61,808 nucleotides of DNA, taken from an uncultured Prevotellaceae bacterium. Its GTDB lineage: Bacteria > Bacteroidota > Bacteroidia > Bacteroidales > Bacteroidaceae. How positions within the stretch are numbered: position 1 is the stretch's first letter; the number at the start of each line of letters is the position of its first letter. Positions 54 through 8,911 of the stretch are shown here, piece after piece. The DNA lies in NCBI GenBank assembly GCA_900315095.1, contig OMXS01000017.1:1-61808 (forward strand), read 5' to 3'. The notes under the pieces are model-generated. The model was not told the DNA's origin. It searched no databases and saw only the letters and a list, made by a program, of their open reading frames with translations. The position numbers and the translations under genes are program-made.

Positions 54-917
54 TCAAATGTATTGTGCCAATATTCCAATCTTATTGGAACGTCGAATTG
101 TCCTGAGAGCCTTTTCACGTATCTGACGGACACGTTCTCTGGATAAACCGAGTGAGACGCCAATATCTTCAAGCCCTTCCTCCTTACAACCAATGCCGAA
201 ACTACGTAATATTATTTCTCTTTCTTTGGCTGAAAGAATATGGTTGAGTATAGCAGTCATATCCTGATGCAGCGACTCCTTATCTAATGATTCATCAGTT
301 TTAGAACCCGAAGAGACAAGGTCACCAATGGAAGTATCTGTATCTTCAGAGAGAGGGGCATCCATAGACAACGTCTTGTTGGTTTGCTCTATGAGTATGC
401 TTGCCTTGTTCTCACTGATATTTGCAAACTCTGCAAACTCTGCTATAGTTGGTTTTCTATGTTCCGTCTGCATTGTCTCTTTCAATAGGATTGAATACAT
501 ATTGATGAGTGCCTGCTGGTTAAGAGGCAATCTGATGATTCTGCCATTCTCACAGATGGCAGAAGAGATGGACTGACGGATCCACCATACGGCATACGAT
601 ATAAACTTGAAGCCTCGTGTGTCATCAAAACGCTCTGCAGCCTTGATAAGCCCAATATTTCCCTCAGAGATGAGGTCTGATAGGTCCATGTCGGGCTGAT
701 GATACTGATTGGCTACGGAGATGACGAAGCGAAGGTTGGCTTCTACAAGTCTCTGCCGTGCCTTGTCAGCCTCCTTACCACCTTGTCTAATCTTTTGTGC
801 GAGAATCACCTCTTCATCTACCGTTGCCATTGGATAACGGCTTACTTCCTTTAGATAATTGTTTACTGAAATGTTGCTGCGCTCGATAATGTTCTTGGTG
901 TTTTTGAATTGTCTCAT
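54..917 (-). CDS. RNA polymerase sigma-70 factor, RpoD-like paralogue
   Basis: A 287-residue sigma-70 protein that should direct RNA polymerase to promoters. Visible regions in order: region 1.2 near residues 17-50, region 2 with NLRFVISVANQY and the core-binding/-10 stretch GFKFISYAVWWIRQSI (about 85-115), a region 3 segment, and region 4 with the helix-turn-helix LGLSRERVRQIREKALR near the C-terminus. The length equals that of the short primary sigma factor of Bacteroidales, but the sequence departs from it in the region 3 linker and in region 4.1. I therefore read it as an accessory paralogue and not as rpoD itself. It lies 39 bases downstream of the 957-1457 gene on the same strand and may be cotranscribed with it. 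Sigma-70 identity is sure; the group assignment is inference. Confidence 0.93.
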   Translation of the reverse strand: MRQFKNTKNIIERSNISVNNYLKEVSRYPMATVDEEVILAQKIRQGGKEADKARQRLVEANLRFVISVANQYHQPDMDLSDLISEGNIGLIKAAERFDDTRGFKFISYAVWWIRQSISSAICENGRIIRLPLNQQALINMYSILLKETMQTEHRKPTIAEFAEFANISENKASILIEQTNKTLSMDAPLSEDTDTSIGDLVSSGSKTDESLDKESLHQDMTAILNHILSAKEREIILRSFGIGCKEEGLEDIGVSLGLSRERVRQIREKALRTIRRSNKIGILAQYI

Positions 918-956: not shown

Positions 957-1457
957 TTATGACTTGAGCACTCTTTTAATAACTATTCTTACATTCTTCA
1001 GTTTAAGTAGGGGTTGACCAAGGTATGAAGAAATCTCATATCCATTTGCCTCCATCCATTTAACTGCCTGGTTCCTAATTTCGTTGTCATAGGCGATAGT
1101 CACTTGTAGAGGCTGATGTGCCGTAAATAGGTCAGGGACATAGGTGGCGCAGTCAGGTTGAGTTGTGGTGATGCCGAGGATGAAGGGCACGAGGCTACCA
1201 TTCAGGGAGCACTTGTCCACCTCCTGCTCGAAGCCCAGTTCCTTCCGTATTCCTTCTATTATCCTCGCCATGTCGAGCAAGGCATCCGTTAGACCGTTCT
1301 GACAGATGACATCCAGTTCAGCGGTCAAATTCTGTTCCATCCCTATGATGTCGATACCTTTTTGTTTTCTTGTGAATTCCACTTGAAAGCGGAACGATTC
1401 ATTCTTTGCTCGTACAGCCAATTGCGCCTTGCGCTTCTGATCTTTGTTCTTACTCAT
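957..1457 (-). CDS. Small protein resembling a fragment of DNA polymerase III alpha
   Basis: A 166-residue basic protein of unknown function. Residues of about 42-140 line up by eye with the start of the catalytic palm of bacterial DNA polymerase III alpha: LTAELDVICQNG matches the helix normally read as ELEVIxxMGF, NGSLVPFILGITTTQP matches the GSLVAYxLGITDxDP motif, and a segment ending RNQAVKWMEANGYE matches the helix that follows the metal-binding aspartates. The acidic PDxDxDF motif is replaced by LQVTIAYD, and the GPGRGS loop is largely lost, so polymerase activity is not expected. It could be a non-catalytic domain with a new role, or a remnant under selection. The uninterrupted frame and the 39-base gap to the sigma gene suggest an expressed operon. 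The alignment is from memory of the family and is not computed. Confidence 0.7.
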   Translation of the reverse strand: MSKNKDQKRKAQLAVRAKNESFRFQVEFTRKQKGIDIIGMEQNLTAELDVICQNGLTDALLDMARIIEGIRKELGFEQEVDKCSLNGSLVPFILGITTTQPDCATYVPDLFTAHQPLQVTIAYDNEIRNQAVKWMEANGYEISSYLGQPLLKLKNVRIVIKRVLKS

Positions 1458-1527
1458 AATTCTAATTACTGATTGTTAAGAGGAATAGCCCTCCATATAT
1501 ATGTATCTTTATACGAATGAAAAGGCA

Positions 1528-1567
1528 CAAAAAACGACGTTTTTGCCTATTGATGTGCAAAAACGCC
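1528..1567 (-). terminator. Rho-independent terminator of the nuclease operon
   Basis: A 9-bp stem (CGTTTTTGC at 1538-1546 with GCAAAAACG at 1557-1565) around a 10-base loop. Read leftward it is followed by a T-rich tract, TCGTTTTTTG. It sits about 60 bases past the stop of the metallo-beta-lactamase gene, where that operon should end. Confidence 0.6.
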
Positions 1568-1628
1568 GCAGAAGATTATAGAAAAAATACGCTATTTGCT
1601 ATTTATCACATAAACTCGAACACTTAGC

Positions 1629-2933
1629 CTACCTGATTACGACATCTATTCCTCCAATAGCTTCATGTGGGGTTGCTGTAAGAACTTTGCCTTTAAGTTC
1701 TTGAGAAATGGGGAGAGAACGGAGGTCGGATTTTTCATCGCGATGGATGGGGATAATTGCATAGCGCGGATTTACCTTTTCACAGACAGCAGCTAAAGCC
1801 TCCCTTGAAGCATGACCTGAAGTATGAAGGTACTCTATGTGCCAATCCTTGCTGTGAACGAAATCATAGGTTCGTTGTTGAAAGGCTTTGTGCTCTTTCA
1901 GCACATATCCACGAAACTGCGAATAGATAAGGCAAGTCCTCTCTGGATTCATCAGCGGATACAGCTCATCTATCATCTTGCGCATCTGAGAGTTATTCCT
2001 TATTAATACCGTTACGCCTTTGTGAGAAATACTCTTCTGTATTTCTTCCTTATGCTTATTGTAATAAAGTTGACGGCCAAAACGATAGCGCCAACCTTTT
2101 GGGTCAGTACCTAATGTTTCGCTAATAGTCTTCATTTGCGTCCACTGATAGCCGTCAACAACAAAAGGTCTGCCTTTGAATTCCTTATTGGCGTTGTAAA
2201 ACGAAGAAATGCGGTCGGCATCCATAGAACTGCACATTACAAAGACATTATCATATCTCTTCATTAGTTCTATAGCAGACTTCATCAGTTCTTCTTCCGA
2301 CTGCACCCTGCTGTCATCGCGGCTCAGCATAGTACCTTCTGTTATGAGAACATCTATCTTGCGACGAGCAATATATGTAGCGATTGTTGGCAAAAGTCCC
2401 TTGCCTCGATACCCATGATCACGGAAATCACCTGTATGCAGAATCCTGCGTCCATCACATTCCACCACAAACATATAGGCATCAGCAGCTGAATGACTCA
2501 CAAAATAAGGAGTCACCCGAATATCATCAATTTTGATTGTTTCTTTAGTATCGTATTCGCAGAAGCTCTCTATAGCATCAATACTTTTCAGCAATGCATT
2601 TTTTCGTTCACCCGTTGCCATATAGGCCTGCTGCCCCTTTAGGACTAACATCATTGCTTTGCTGGCTTTTCCGATATATTGGGGAATCCCTGCCTCCCTC
2701 ACTATGGCTTCGAAACTCAAGTGGTCGCCATGTGGATGAGTATAAAACACTGCATTTACCCCTTTAAGGAGTTCATCCATCTTTTCTGGCTGGTCATAGA
2801 TGTCATCTGAAAGTTTATCGCCCTCAGGCAGGTTATGCCCAAGGTCGATAAGTATTTTTGTTCCTTTCTCAGACTTTATCTCTGTGATACAGCCCCCAAT
2901 TTGGTGTGAGCCGCGATGAATCGTGATGGTCAT
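1629..2933 (-). CDS. Metallo-beta-lactamase-fold hydrolase, RNase J/beta-CASP-like
   Basis: A 434-residue metallo-beta-lactamase protein. The metal site motif THPHGDH (H66, H68, D70, H71) is intact, as are a later histidine in FVSHSAADAY (about 149), the aspartate of LHTGDFRDHG (about 170), and the C-terminal HTSGHAS and IIPIHRDE motifs characteristic of RNase J and other beta-CASP nucleases. These enzymes cut RNA or DNA, or degrade it from the 5' end. At 434 residues it is shorter than RNase J (about 550) and lacks the usual C-terminal extension, so it is probably a specialised relative and not the housekeeping enzyme. The start overlaps the stop of the upstream nuclease-like gene by 4 bases, which implies translational coupling and a joint function. 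Substrate unknown. Confidence 0.85.
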   Translation of the reverse strand: MTITIHRGSHQIGGCITEIKSEKGTKILIDLGHNLPEGDKLSDDIYDQPEKMDELLKGVNAVFYTHPHGDHLSFEAIVREAGIPQYIGKASKAMMLVLKGQQAYMATGERKNALLKSIDAIESFCEYDTKETIKIDDIRVTPYFVSHSAADAYMFVVECDGRRILHTGDFRDHGYRGKGLLPTIATYIARRKIDVLITEGTMLSRDDSRVQSEEELMKSAIELMKRYDNVFVMCSSMDADRISSFYNANKEFKGRPFVVDGYQWTQMKTISETLGTDPKGWRYRFGRQLYYNKHKEEIQKSISHKGVTVLIRNNSQMRKMIDELYPLMNPERTCLIYSQFRGYVLKEHKAFQQRTYDFVHSKDWHIEYLHTSGHASREALAAVCEKVNPRYAIIPIHRDEKSDLRSLPISQELKGKVLTATPHEAIGGIDVVIR

Positions 2934-3904
2934 TGCATTAAAAGTTCTTTGAATGAACCACTAAACTCAACTTTTTCTCTTGAATACAAAGCATCTTTAT
3001 CAAAATATAATGTATGTGTCCGAAGAGCAAAGCTACCAACCTGATATTCTTCCTCAATAATAGTCTCTTCGCCCTTTGGGATGAGGCCGACGACATCAAT
3101 AACATTAGGGCATTTTCTTTTTTTATAACCAAAAATCTTCATCCAATCAGCCCCTCCTTTACTGTCCAGAAGTTTTGCAATAAAAACGGCATAGCTGAGG
3201 GCTTGTTGAATAACATCGGACATAGGTTCATCTGACTTGTTTTCATCCTTTAGTTCAAAAATACTGAGATAAACCTTATTGTCTTTATGACGGGAACGAG
3301 CCATAATGTCTATTCCACCGCCTTTTTTACTATATGAAACTACTCCTTTCTTTGATGCACTAAGGTTAGTGGTAAGTTGCACAAATTCTCCTCCAAAGGT
3401 AATGGGCTGAATATTAATAAGTGATTTCTTTTTTGAATCAGTCTGATGGAACTCACGCAAAAGAAGATTCTCACATTTATGCTCAGGAGAATGAATCTCA
3501 GCGTATTTGACATCAATATGCGATAAGAATGACCTAAAACGTTTCATGTTGCGACTATTCCATTCTTCTTTATCCTGCAACTTAGGAATGTCAGGGTATC
3601 TCTTAACCAAATCATTATACCCACTTTTGCTTTTCTTAAAGTATGGTTTACTGTCTGGCTCGAAAGAAAACGAACCGATACTTTGTCCAAGATATCGAAT
3701 ATCTGTTTCGACTTTCTTTCCTCTATATTTTGTGATAGAAGTATATTTGGATAGAGGGAATTTTACTTTGGCCTTATTGTTCATCTCCTTATGATATGAC
3801 TCATGCTTTAAAATGTCTTTTGCATAATTTGCGTACCGAGTTTCCCAATCGGAATCTTTCGATATTTCGATAAGGGTCTTTTCAATGATTTCTTTGTTTG
3901 TCAT
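2930..3904 (-). CDS. PD-(D/E)XK nuclease-like protein, partner of the MBL hydrolase
   Basis: A 324-residue protein of no family I can name. Residues of about 197-221 read GGGIDIMARS, then VYLSIFELKDEN, which is the layout of a PD-(D/E)XK nuclease core: D199 at the end of one strand, then E217-x-K219 on the next. The following helix (SDVIQQALSYAVFIAKLL) also suits this fold. The N-terminal 170 residues are lysine-rich with no recognisable domain. There is no signal peptide, so it is cytoplasmic. It overlaps the MBL gene by 4 bases (ATGA-type coupling) and follows the damaged WYL regulator by 27 bases. The pairing of two nuclease folds with a WYL regulator resembles a phage-defence operon. The nuclease call is inference from motif spacing. 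Confidence 0.7.
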   Translation of the reverse strand: MTNKEIIEKTLIEISKDSDWETRYANYAKDILKHESYHKEMNNKAKVKFPLSKYTSITKYRGKKVETDIRYLGQSIGSFSFEPDSKPYFKKSKSGYNDLVKRYPDIPKLQDKEEWNSRNMKRFRSFLSHIDVKYAEIHSPEHKCENLLLREFHQTDSKKKSLINIQPITFGGEFVQLTTNLSASKKGVVSYSKKGGGIDIMARSRHKDNKVYLSIFELKDENKSDEPMSDVIQQALSYAVFIAKLLDSKGGADWMKIFGYKKRKCPNVIDVVGLIPKGEETIIEEEYQVGSFALRTHTLYFDKDALYSREKVEFSGSFKELLMQ

Positions 3905-3931
3905 AATAGTACATTTTTGTTAGTTGTTTTT

Positions 3932-4787
3932 TTACATATATCTTTCCAAACTATTCTTTATTTTCACTTTCATCTCTTCTCTCAGCTCCTGAGGCTCTAA
4001 AACCTCCACCTTATCCCCCATTGCCAGCAACTGAGTGACCAAATCAGGAGTGATACATAATCTATAAGTGAATTCAGCGAACTCACCATGCTTGGATTTT
4101 CCTTCTGATTGGCTTTTATGGAGCGGAGTAGAGCGGAGATAATCTGCCTGAATGCCGTAGGCGCGGATTTTGACTTTTGTAATGGGTAAGTCTTTATTCA
4201 CAAAGATGCCAACAACATTAGAAAAGTACTTGCGAGCATCAAAGTCTTCAGGCAAAGTGAAACTTTTCGTAAGCACTTTCAGTGCAAGTATACGGTCAAG
4301 GGCTATTGTGCGCAAACCATCTTTTTCTTTAATAAATCCCAATAGATACCAACGTCGATTGAAGACTTTCAAAGCGTATGGCTGAATATGAAATGTCTGC
4401 AAATGTTCTTCGCCCTGTTCTCCCTCATATCGCTGATAGTCAAGGTATTTCTTCCAACAAAACCCTGTCCTTCATGCTATTGAATGTCGCAAAATCCTGA
4501 GGAATGCTATACTTGTGCAGCAGCCACTTAGCTACCTTCTGTTTGTCCAGCACCTCTGGGTTCTTGACATAATATACATTACCATGTGAACGGTCGCATA
4601 CTATCTCCACACCGAACATTTCCTTGATTCCCTTTCTCTGCTCATGGAAAGTGCGTAGTGGTATAGGTCGTCCATCGCTGGCAGGGCAATTCTTCCACTG
4701 CATATTGATCTCGTCAATCGTCAGAGGACAACAGTTCAGCAACGTGTCGAGGAGCCAAATGTATCTGTAGTATGTTTTGCTAATCAT
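3932..4787 (-). pseudogene. WYL-domain transcriptional regulator, frameshifted with an internal deletion
   Basis: The N-terminal part (4787-4440, 115 residues) is the helix-turn-helix half of a Bacteroidota WYL regulator, with MISKTYYRYIWLLDTLL and RTFHEQRKGI, and stops after VLLEEIP. The C-terminal WYL half continues in a different frame from about 4450 through LDYQRYEGEQGEEHL and the ligand-site stretch LKVFNRRWYLLGFI to the stop at 3932. In intact relatives about 20 residues separate the EEIP and YQRY motifs. Here they abut, so roughly 60 bases appear lost, with a frame change. A separate C-terminal protein could still start at a TTG (4402). WYL proteins commonly repress defence operons, so loss of this one could leave the two downstream nuclease genes unregulated. 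The deletion size is an estimate from family memory. Confidence 0.75.
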
Positions 4788-7919: not shown

Positions 7920-7950
7920 TTTGCTATTTGAAGAAAAAAATATAACTTTG
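7920..7950 (+). promoter_or_regulatory. Promoter of the toxin-antitoxin-like operon
   Basis: TTTG at 7920-7923 and TAACTTTG at 7943-7950, spaced exactly 19 bases. Transcription should begin near 7957, so the earlier ATG at 7921 cannot be used and translation starts at 7981. Confidence 0.75.
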
Positions 7951-7980
7951 CGAAGAAATAAAACAAGGCAAGCATCATAT

Positions 7981-8205
7981 ATGAACAAGAAGAAACAAGA
8001 CATAGCCTATTTCGTTTCTTTCTGCATAGAGCAGTACAAGAAAGCAAAGGGCATCACTGGTTCAGAAGCGGTGATGCAACTCGACAAATATCATGTCTTG
8101 GAGTATCTTGCAGAACATTATGAGGTATTGCATACACAGAGCCGTCAGTGGATTCTTGAAGAAATAGATGAGTTCATTAGGCTCAGAAAGGAGAAACAAC
8201 AATGA
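7981..8205 (+). CDS. DUF3791-like small protein, probable antitoxin
   Basis: A 74-residue, charged, all-helical protein (DIAYFVSFCIEQYKKAKGI, then a helix around HVLEYLAEHY, then a C-terminal DEFI segment) matching the DUF3791 pattern as I know it. The start at 7981 is set by the promoter, whose -7 element ends at 7950. Its stop overlaps the start of the next gene by 4 bases. DUF3791 proteins habitually precede DUF3990 ADP-ribosyltransferase-like proteins, the arrangement of an antitoxin and its toxin. Function is inferred from this context; nothing in the sequence shows neutralising activity directly. Confidence 0.75.
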   Translation: MNKKKQDIAYFVSFCIEQYKKAKGITGSEAVMQLDKYHVLEYLAEHYEVLHTQSRQWILEEIDEFIRLRKEKQQ

Positions 8206-8687
8206 AACTTTTTCACGGAAGCACAGAAATAGTATCCACACCCGAAGTTAGAATTCCGGACAGGACACTTGACTATGGAAGCGGGTTCTACACCACAACA
8301 TCGTTACGACAGGCACAAGACTGGGTGCGGCGAAGAATAAAGGAAAAGGAAACACACAAAGGGTATGTCAACTGTTATGAATTTGACGAAAGTGCACTAA
8401 AAAGCATGAAATGCCTAATTTTCAGCGCGCCCACCGAGGAATGGGTTGACTTCGTTATGAACAACCGCACCCAGAGAGGGTTCTCACATGACTATGATAT
8501 AGTTTACGGACCTGTGGCTAACGACCGTGTTTATGCTGCTTTCGCACTCTATGAGGGAGGACTGCTTGATAAACAGAACCTTATTGCTGAACTCAAGACG
8601 TATAAACTGGTTGATCAACTACTGTTTCACACAGATACAGCATTACGGTCATTAACATTTATCGAAGCAAAGGAGGTAACAAAATGA
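8202..8687 (+). CDS. DUF3990 family protein, ADP-ribosyltransferase-like putative toxin
   Basis: A 161-residue cytoplasmic protein that opens with LFHGSTEI (H5-G6) and continues with DYGSGFYTTTS near residues 24-34. These are the first two strands of the ART superfamily, in which the histidine and a tyrosine bind NAD. VYGPVAND near 101 and DQLLFHTDTAL near 138 fit the remaining core, with Q139 at the site where classical enzymes carry the catalytic glutamate. DUF3990 has been placed in the ART superfamily by comparative work. The likely role is ADP-ribosylation of a cellular target, as a toxin held in check by its neighbours. It shares 4-base overlaps with the genes on both sides, so all three should be made together. 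Target unknown. Confidence 0.75.
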   Translation: MKLFHGSTEIVSTPEVRIPDRTLDYGSGFYTTTSLRQAQDWVRRRIKEKETHKGYVNCYEFDESALKSMKCLIFSAPTEEWVDFVMNNRTQRGFSHDYDIVYGPVANDRVYAAFALYEGGLLDKQNLIAELKTYKLVDQLLFHTDTALRSLTFIEAKEVTK

Positions 8688-8911
8688 ATCTGGAAATTAA
8701 TCAAAACAATATCCATCTGCTATTGCCGTCAAAAGTTGCATGGATAGCAGATATGATGACAGAAGACAGGGGCATCAGTATTGTTGATGCTCTAAAGGAA
8801 ATATATACTTCCGACATGTACCGCCAGCTTGAAACGGAATCTACGAAGAAGTGGCACTACGGCCCTGTTGCACTATATCAGGAAATCAAGTCTAACAACG
8901 GTTTACGTTGA
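8684..8911 (+). CDS. Second small helical protein of the toxin-antitoxin operon
   Basis: A 75-residue protein with KVAWIADMMTEDRGISIVDALKEIYTSDMYRQLE, similar in helix layout and length to the DUF3791-like protein at 7981-8205 (hydrophobic helix, GIS/GIT turn, helix, helix). It may be a diverged paralogue and hence a second antitoxin, or a cofactor that completes a three-protein complex. The start overlaps the toxin stop by 4 bases. No terminator is visible before the MITE-like element that starts 19 bases after the stop. Confidence 0.7.
   Translation: MNLEINQNNIHLLLPSKVAWIADMMTEDRGISIVDALKEIYTSDMYRQLETESTKKWHYGPVALYQEIKSNNGLR

What the first reader, a model, noticed from the sequence alone, without database searches (positions are those of the whole stretch)
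1629..4787. Candidate defence operon: PD-(D/E)XK-like protein coupled to an RNase J-like MBL nuclease, behind a WYL regulator
Seen: a 4-base overlap joins a 324-residue protein with a D199...E217-x-K219 layout to a 434-residue beta-CASP-like MBL enzyme; both follow a WYL regulator and are closed by a terminator. Known: WYL regulators commonly control anti-phage operons. Inference: two nuclease folds made together may form a nucleic-acid-degrading defence unit. I know no named system with this pair.
Basis: partly seen in the sequence, partly recalled or inferred. Interest (0 to 1): 0.75.

Follow-up and report, generated by a model that had tools for sequence, protein, structure and literature searches.

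The report
Two-nuclease gene pair with swapped partners
A bacterial gene pair that looks like two nucleic-acid-cutting enzymes made together keeps one enzyme and repeatedly swaps the other between related species, which fits an unnamed defence against viruses and plasmids, though no activity has been tested.

Summary
The gene pair is real: a PD-(D/E)XK-type protein (324 aa, 2930-3904) and an RNase J-like beta-CASP MBL (434 aa, 1629-2933), same strand, 4-base overlap. The "WYL regulator" is broken here: two ORFs in different frames, 62 nt shorter than two intact relatives. The pair is not a one-off: of 26 family MBL loci, 19 have a separate neighbour, and one a fused domain, with a strict D...ExK pattern (25 of 26 by eye); per ORF, 19 of 43 neighbours against 8 of 185 background ORFs. 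Similar pairs occur on Butyrivibrio and proteobacterial plasmids, in virus-collection contigs, and once directly before BREX brxA-brxB-brxC. The MBL stays, its partner changes: 42 partners form 10 sequence clusters, scattered over the MBL tree no better than shuffled labels. The window operon is itself a recombinant: MBL block 89% identical to one species, partner gene 86% to another, joined within the first ~70 nt of the MBL gene. Other cargo of the same Prevotella site includes restriction-endonuclease-family proteins. Best reading: an unnamed anti-invader module, variable PD-(D/E)XK nuclease plus constant beta-CASP nuclease. Defence is inferred from context; no activity was tested, and the partner's fold was not confirmed by a good model.

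The parts
2930..3904 (-). Predicted PD-(D/E)XK nuclease, 324 aa; E145 (helix before the core), D199, E217-x-K219, Q234 conserved
   Evidence: no meaningful Pfam, NCBIfam or PDB sequence match; poor AlphaFold model with alpha-beta3-alpha-beta order
1629..2933 (-). RNase J-like MBL/beta-CASP hydrolase, 434 aa; H66-x-H68-x-D70-H71, H147, D169, H370/H374, H397
2930..2933 (-). 4-base overlap of the two genes (translational coupling likely)
   Evidence: overlap of some length in 16 of the 26 directly adjacent pairs that I listed, 4 bases in 8 (some starts are my longest-ORF choice)
2881..2948 (.). Recombination joint: stretch that matches both parent-type operons; the partner-gene side follows G019, the MBL side follows G797
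3932..4787 (-). Broken WYL regulator gene (fragments 4440-4787 and 3932-4402, different frames; 62 nt shorter than two intact relatives)
1493..1575 (-). Conserved border element with terminator-like hairpin between cargo and the next gene
957..1457 (-). 166-aa protein, constant flank of the cargo site; family weakly like the palm/NTPase domain of DNA polymerase III alpha
54..917 (-). Sigma-70-type factor (287 aa), second frequent flank gene

Best explanation
The two genes form an anti-invader (phage/plasmid) module of two nucleases. The PD-(D/E)XK protein makes the first, selective cut in invading nucleic acid, and the RNase J-like beta-CASP MBL, whose relatives work from a free 5' end, carries the degradation on. 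The MBL is the constant, general part; the PD-(D/E)XK protein is the variable part and is replaced by recombination at a cassette site, ordinarily under a WYL repressor (here broken). SHOWN by computation: the pair, its recurrence, conservation of both sets of catalytic residues, frequent gene overlap, a fused MBL-PD-(D/E)XK reading frame, partner exchange, and location on mobile elements and, in some cases, next to defence genes. INFERRED: that both are active, that the target is invader DNA or its transcripts, that the PD-(D/E)XK protein gives the specificity, the order of the two steps, and WYL control.
For: Recurrence: 19 of 26 family MBL loci have a separate same-strand neighbour with a strict D...ExK pattern and one (L091) a fused domain with it; 25 of 26 by eye. 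Per ORF of 200-450 aa: 19 of 43 flank ORFs against 8 of 185 background ORFs, Fisher p 3e-10; for the 18 loci whose MBLs were not used to build the search profile, 12 of 18 loci and 12 of 31 ORFs, p 5e-7. Across phyla: partner found in 7 of 9 plasmid records opened, of 10 hit, and clearly in 3 of 4 virus-collection contigs examined, of 5 returned, the fourth weakly. Fusion into one 720-aa frame in G543. Catalytic residues of the largest partner cluster invariant in 18 members that are 12-25% identical to the first row, except one at 55%. Partner labels on the 41-MBL tree need 19 changes, shuffled mean 19.4. The window operon is a recombinant. Context: BrxA, BrxB, BrxC just downstream of one pair and PglZ on that contig; restriction-family cargo at the same Prevotella site; a restriction-modification gene set beside the Rhizobium phaseoli pair.
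Against: No activity data. The PD-(D/E)XK fold is not confirmed by a reliable model or a significant database match. No PADLOC model gives a significant hit to the window pair. Only one BREX association was seen, and its MBL lies at the contig end, only its C-terminal part being read. No self/non-self mark or modification gene was noticed in the window operon. The MBL's nearest structural relatives are RNA enzymes, which fits a DNA-restriction role only indirectly. Two plasmid MBLs (H2, H8) and one genome locus (L060) show no PD-(D/E)XK neighbour. I made no census of defence genes around the pair against a background.
Confidence: 0.5

Rival explanations
1. Toxin-antitoxin or abortive-infection unit: one enzyme is toxic (most likely the PD-(D/E)XK nuclease or the MBL ribonuclease) and the other holds it in check or repairs its damage; infection releases it.
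For: Two small coupled genes on mobile elements, overlapping in 16 of 26 listed adjacent pairs; the WYL regulator BrxR is a repressor and 48% of its homologues lie with phage defence systems (abstract of PMC9122601), as expected for costly genes.
Against: A specific protein-protein antitoxin should coevolve with its toxin, yet nearly identical MBLs carry partners of different clusters; both proteins keep full sets of catalytic residues.
Confidence: 0.25
2. Mobile-element-borne nucleic-acid processing or repair module (for example end trimming with the metallophosphoesterase often found beside it), not defence.
For: RNase J-like fold; a metallophosphoesterase gene, in part cut or partial, lies within the flanks of 9 of 26 loci and beside two plasmid copies; plasmid and virus-collection location.
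Against: Frequent replacement of the PD-(D/E)XK part, shared site with restriction-family cargo and the BREX neighbourhood are typical of defence; the full-length MBL is at 26 places in 23 of 201 genus genomes, so it is not a core function.
Confidence: 0.15
3. The window copy is a dying relic: regulator broken, parts shuffled, possibly an assembly chimera.
For: WYL gene broken; recombinant structure; the genome is a 58-contig draft.
Against: Both nuclease genes are full length with all catalytic residues; other species show the same kind of partner exchange; the join lies in sequence shared by both parent types.
Confidence: 0.1

Closest known systems
RNase J / beta-CASP ribonucleases
   Same: MBL fold with beta-CASP insert and RMMBL motif; best structural matches; matches TIGR00649 over residues 8-397; His in the last motif (H397), as in RNA-cutting members (rule recalled, not from a call)
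   Different: 51.9 bits against a cut-off of 400; 434 aa against about 550 for most RNase J chains matched, without the RNase J C-terminal domain; patchy, on mobile elements, tied to a PD-(D/E)XK partner
MBL nuclease-protease pairs of Hachiman, AVAST, Lamassu, DRT (PMC12799240; passages read)
   Same: An MBL-type nuclease recurrently paired with another enzyme and acquired by several immune systems
   Different: There the partner is a trypsin-like protease and the MBL resembles DNA-uptake nucleases; here the partner is a PD-(D/E)XK-type protein and the MBL is beta-CASP type
REase-ARP / PDDEXK_13 restriction-endonuclease families (PF22558, PF20796)
   Same: Occupy the same cargo slot between WYL and the 166-aa gene in some other species of the genus
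   Different: No family MBL was seen in the printed stretches around those copies (L025-L027, L031); the window protein does not match these families
BREX with BrxR/WYL control
   Same: One copy of the pair sits directly before brxA-brxB-brxC with PglZ on the contig
   Different: No BREX model hit the five window proteins scanned, apart from WYL models; a 2026 survey of BREX diversity has no mention of MBL, lactamase, beta-CASP or RNase J in its main text (PMC12839542, term search only)
Type VII CRISPR Cas14
   Same: beta-CASP MBL in a defence role; weak match 30.4 bits; among the structural matches
   Different: Cut-off 800 bits; shorter; the partner is not a Cas protein

Membership tests
PD-(D/E)XK nuclease superfamily (324-aa protein) | D...(D/E)xK active-site motif, conserved | tested here: met
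   D199, E217, K219 invariant in 8 of 8
PD-(D/E)XK nuclease superfamily (324-aa protein) | alpha-beta-beta-beta-alpha-beta core fold | tested here: inconclusive
   Order of predicted elements fits, but pLDDT 51.7 and best PDB match E 0.1; profile match to the largest partner cluster covers only the motif region, E 0.0016, probability 16
RNase J family | MBL + beta-CASP catalytic core | tested here: met
RNase J family | Score above the curated family cut-off | tested here: not met
   51.9 of 400 bits, although 13 of 13 family members match TIGR00649 at E<=0.001
RNase J family | Exo/endoribonuclease activity | not testable with these tools
   needs biochemistry
REase-ARP (PF22558) | Pfam match above cut-off | tested here: not met
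   0 families for the window protein at E<=1
BREX | BrxA/B/C, PglX, PglZ in the locus | tested here: not met
   None among the five window proteins scanned; seen only in the contig of L005
6A-MBL and GPMC anti-phage systems | MBL above NCBIfam cut-off | tested here: not met
   18.2 of 220 and 16.5 of 360 bits
MBL nuclease-protease pair | Trypsin-like protease partner | tested here: not met
   No peptidase match among the six window proteins scanned
Known PADLOC defence system | PADLOC model match | tested here: not met
   Window MBL 0 families, window partner only PDC-S11 at E 0.025; of 13 MBLs, 2 match LmuA weakly, best E 0.0009; of 18 proteins of the largest partner cluster, one matches each of two PDC-S11 models (0.00024, 0.00064) and one DUF2290 (0.0019)

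The most novel reading that the evidence does not exclude
A modular immune system in which one conserved RNase J-like MBL works with whatever PD-(D/E)XK cassette is recombined in beside it: specificity changes by swapping the whole nuclease partner, without matching changes in the MBL, in Prevotella often inside a cassette site bounded by a conserved hairpin element.
Probability: 0.35. Interest if true: 0.8.

Novelty: new variant of a known kind. Interest (0 to 1): 0.6.

Why it matters
If it is defence, it adds a two-nuclease system found in three phyla that the libraries searched here do not name, and a natural experiment in plug-in partners: near-identical MBLs with nucleases of different families. 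That makes a direct test possible: does changing only the PD-(D/E)XK gene change which phages are blocked? It also marks a cassette site in Prevotella where further restriction-like systems can be found.

Tried and rejected
Rejected: (1) the pair as unique to this genome. (2) Housekeeping RNase J: the family is patchy, with a clear score gap to ordinary MBLs in the genus scan (full-length matches 454-595 bits, then split or partial matches, then ordinary MBLs at about 44 bits and below). (3) A co-inherited, coevolving pair: contradicted by the tree.

Led nowhere: PDB sequence searches with the 324-aa protein and with its profile; tblastn of it in plasmids and phages; the genome-contig scan gave one relative; the phylum scan with a three-row profile found only the window's own copy, 1 of 395; a second virus-collection scan with the eight-row profile found the same contig again, a second one for the MBL the same five, tblastn of a proteobacterial MBL the same ten plasmids and no phage record; AlphaFold of the 324-aa protein gave pLDDT 51.7 and Foldseek nothing better than E 0.1. 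tblastn of one MBL in phage records gave only weak matches in unannotated records, not followed.

Literature: searches for REase-ARP and 6A-MBL gave 0 papers. In the listings (titles, starts of abstracts) (107 lists 15 of 19) I saw no MBL + PD-(D/E)XK system. Of those papers I opened five: term searches or passages in PMC12458937, PMC12799240, PMC12839542 and PMC10853773 and abstract plus outline of PMC9122601. Unheld preprints and subscription journals could hold such a report.

Limits of the counts: the MBL profile A4 was built from 13 MBLs met through the 324-aa family or the 166-aa gene, so 8 of the 26 counted loci are its own sources; the other 18 are given apart. Of the loci returned, L061-L087 (73 bits and below) and L111-L116 (fragments or ordinary MBLs) were left out of the 26. 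L110 is a split match. Three second copies had no locus of their own (G543, G632, G545); part of the one in G543 is seen in L091. Plasmid record H10 was not opened; it has the same length and match coordinates as H9. L057 was not examined; its match is the same as L056's. In Ochrobactrum the partner lies one small ORF away, in L053 one gene away, and in G706, G629, G807 and some census loci other genes lie between. The 185 background ORFs come from fetched stretches, not whole genomes, and some of the 8 hits are probably real nucleases of the cargo site. The strict pattern missed 5 neighbours that I accepted by eye (L093, L094, L097, L102, L103). For the tree I assigned one partner label per MBL by hand: G807 was labelled by its adjacent partner although a window-type protein is also in its locus, and G543a by its neighbourhood.
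Full report
WHAT IS THERE. On the minus strand, from 4787 down to 54, lie: a broken WYL gene, a 324-aa protein (2930-3904), a 434-aa MBL (1629-2933) overlapping it by four bases, an 83-nt border element (1493-1575), a 166-aa protein (957-1457) and a sigma-70-type factor (54-917). The window is a whole contig of a 58-contig draft genome.

THE MBL. It matches Lactamase_B and RMMBL above cut-off and RNase J models far below theirs. A six-row AlphaFold model (pLDDT 79.1, pTM 0.83) matches RNase J best, and further down CPSF-like and Cas14 beta-CASP enzymes. H66, H68, D70, H71, H147, D169, H370, H374 and H397 are invariant in 13 family members. It lacks the extra C-terminal part of RNase J.

THE 324-aa PROTEIN. 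No meaningful match in Pfam, NCBIfam or PDB sequences. Eight homologues share E145, D199, E217-x-K219 and Q234. The three-row model is poor (pLDDT 51.7), but its elements run helix 141-154, strands 168-178, 199-204, 211-216, helix 230-246, strand 268-276, the order of a PD-(D/E)XK core. Foldseek found nothing better than E 0.1. The assignment therefore rests on motif, order of elements, and the company it keeps.

THE PAIR RECURS. Of 399 genus genomes, 7 (the window's own included) have the window-type 324-aa protein, and in all 7 a family MBL is in the same locus; in G706, G629 and G807 other genes lie between. The eighth case, virus-collection contig L005, has the end of an MBL gene overlapping the protein's gene, then brxA, brxB, brxC; PglZ is on the same contig. 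Searching with the MBL instead, 26 loci were examined: 19 have a separate same-strand neighbour of 200-450 aa with the strict D...ExK pattern, one a fused domain with it, 25 in all when read by eye, and one (L060, near a contig end) none. Per ORF this is 19 of 43 flank ORFs against 8 of 185 background ORFs (p 3e-10); an earlier per-locus test overstated the contrast. For the 18 loci not used for the profile: 12 of 18 loci, 12 of 31 ORFs, p 5e-7. Plasmid MBL relatives in Butyrivibrio, Cereibacter, Ochrobactrum, Cupriavidus, Sphingomonas (two) and Rhizobium phaseoli have such a partner; those of Prevotella pE2-28 and Rhizobium leguminosarum pRlX5 do not: 7 of 9 opened, of 10 hit. In the virus collection, L053, L054 and L055 have one; L056 only a weak one on the other strand; the fifth contig, L057, was not examined. 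Gene overlap occurs in 16 of 26 adjacent pairs that I listed, some of it perhaps due to my choice of start codons. In G543 the two are one 720-aa frame.

PARTNERS ARE EXCHANGED. Forty-two partners fall into 10 BLAST clusters (20, 8, 3, 3, 2, 2 and four single ones; 39 of 42 match a relaxed pattern). The largest has R48, E109, D132, E134, D151, E167 and K169 invariant in 18 aligned members. On a maximum-likelihood tree of 41 MBLs the ten labels need 19 changes (least possible 9; shuffled mean 19.4, as low in 81 of 200); the six window-type rows need six changes. Neighbouring MBLs with partners of different clusters include window/G797, G706/G499, G581/G733, G632/G007 and G615/G543b. The window shows one such event directly: 724-2948 is 89% identical to G797 and 2881-3932 is 86% identical to G019, while G019 falls to about 35-53% in the MBL gene and G797 to about 39-46% in the partner gene.

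THE SITE. The 166-aa gene is matched in 37 of 399 genus genomes at E 0.001; some of the weakest matches lie inside polymerase-length frames, one of which proved to be a DNA polymerase III alpha protein. I fetched 20 regions around matches. In the printed stretches 12 of 20 hold a WYL gene or piece, 9 a sigma-factor gene or piece, 7 the AAA protein; L042 and L043 are of the polymerase-length kind. Cargo includes REase-ARP proteins (four over the cut-off of ten proteins scanned) and MBL pairs. The border element is 87-98% identical over 65 nt or more in ten other genomes of the genus among those fetched, in two copies in L025 and L029, with shorter partial copies in L004 and L033. It may be the homology used for cassette exchange (inference).

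MECHANISM. Exchange without matching change in the MBL argues against a tight, coevolved toxin-antitoxin contact and for enzymes acting in sequence on nucleic acid. I therefore prefer: variable PD-(D/E)XK cut, then general beta-CASP degradation, normally held down by a WYL repressor of the BrxR kind (BrxR is a repressor, and 48% of homologues co-localise with known phage defence systems: abstract of PMC9122601). Everything about activity and target is inference.

NOVELTY. No Pfam, PADLOC or NCBIfam model scanned names the pair, and the literature listings named in Tried and rejected did not show it; the nearest published idea is the MBL nuclease-protease pair. I call it a new variant of a known kind, modular nuclease defence, with the caveat that most subscription papers and all preprints outside PubMed Central are not in the library.

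Noticed in passing
window 957-1457; L013:2261-2773; L014:4162-4695: 166-aa family with weak similarity to the DNA polymerase III alpha NTPase/palm domain (best PF07733 E 1.6e-5, above cut-off in one copy of three scanned). By eye it seems to lack the catalytic aspartates; function unknown.
   Followed up: partly
window 4443/4444: WYL gene 62 nt shorter than in G797 and G028, which breaks its frame; intact copies exist in relatives.
   Followed up: partly
window 1493-1575; L025, L029, L004: Intergenic hairpin element at cargo borders, 87-98% identical in ten other genomes of the genus, in two copies in some loci.
   Followed up: partly
L014 43-1513 and 6129-7599: WYL + partner + 177-aa gene + MBL lie between two same-strand copies of a two-gene element, as in a composite transposon; the element itself was not identified.
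   Followed up: no
L048 5558-5953; L122 6256-6630; L123 4549-4992; L051 5516-5992: A small protein with a GIFW motif recurs beside the MBL in alphaproteobacterial plasmids; possible third component.
   Followed up: no
L090, L092-L095, L098, L102, L105, L107: A metallophosphoesterase-like gene lies within the flanks in 9 of 26 loci (some cut or partial).
   Followed up: partly
window 7921-8911: Three small plus-strand genes in a row; from memory they resemble DUF3791/DUF3990-type toxin-like clusters. Not scanned.
   Followed up: no
L004:7061-7798; L105:2840-3553; L044:9485-10207: A DUF6946 protein (PF22187, E 2e-18 for the L004 copy) is another recurrent gene of these loci.
   Followed up: no
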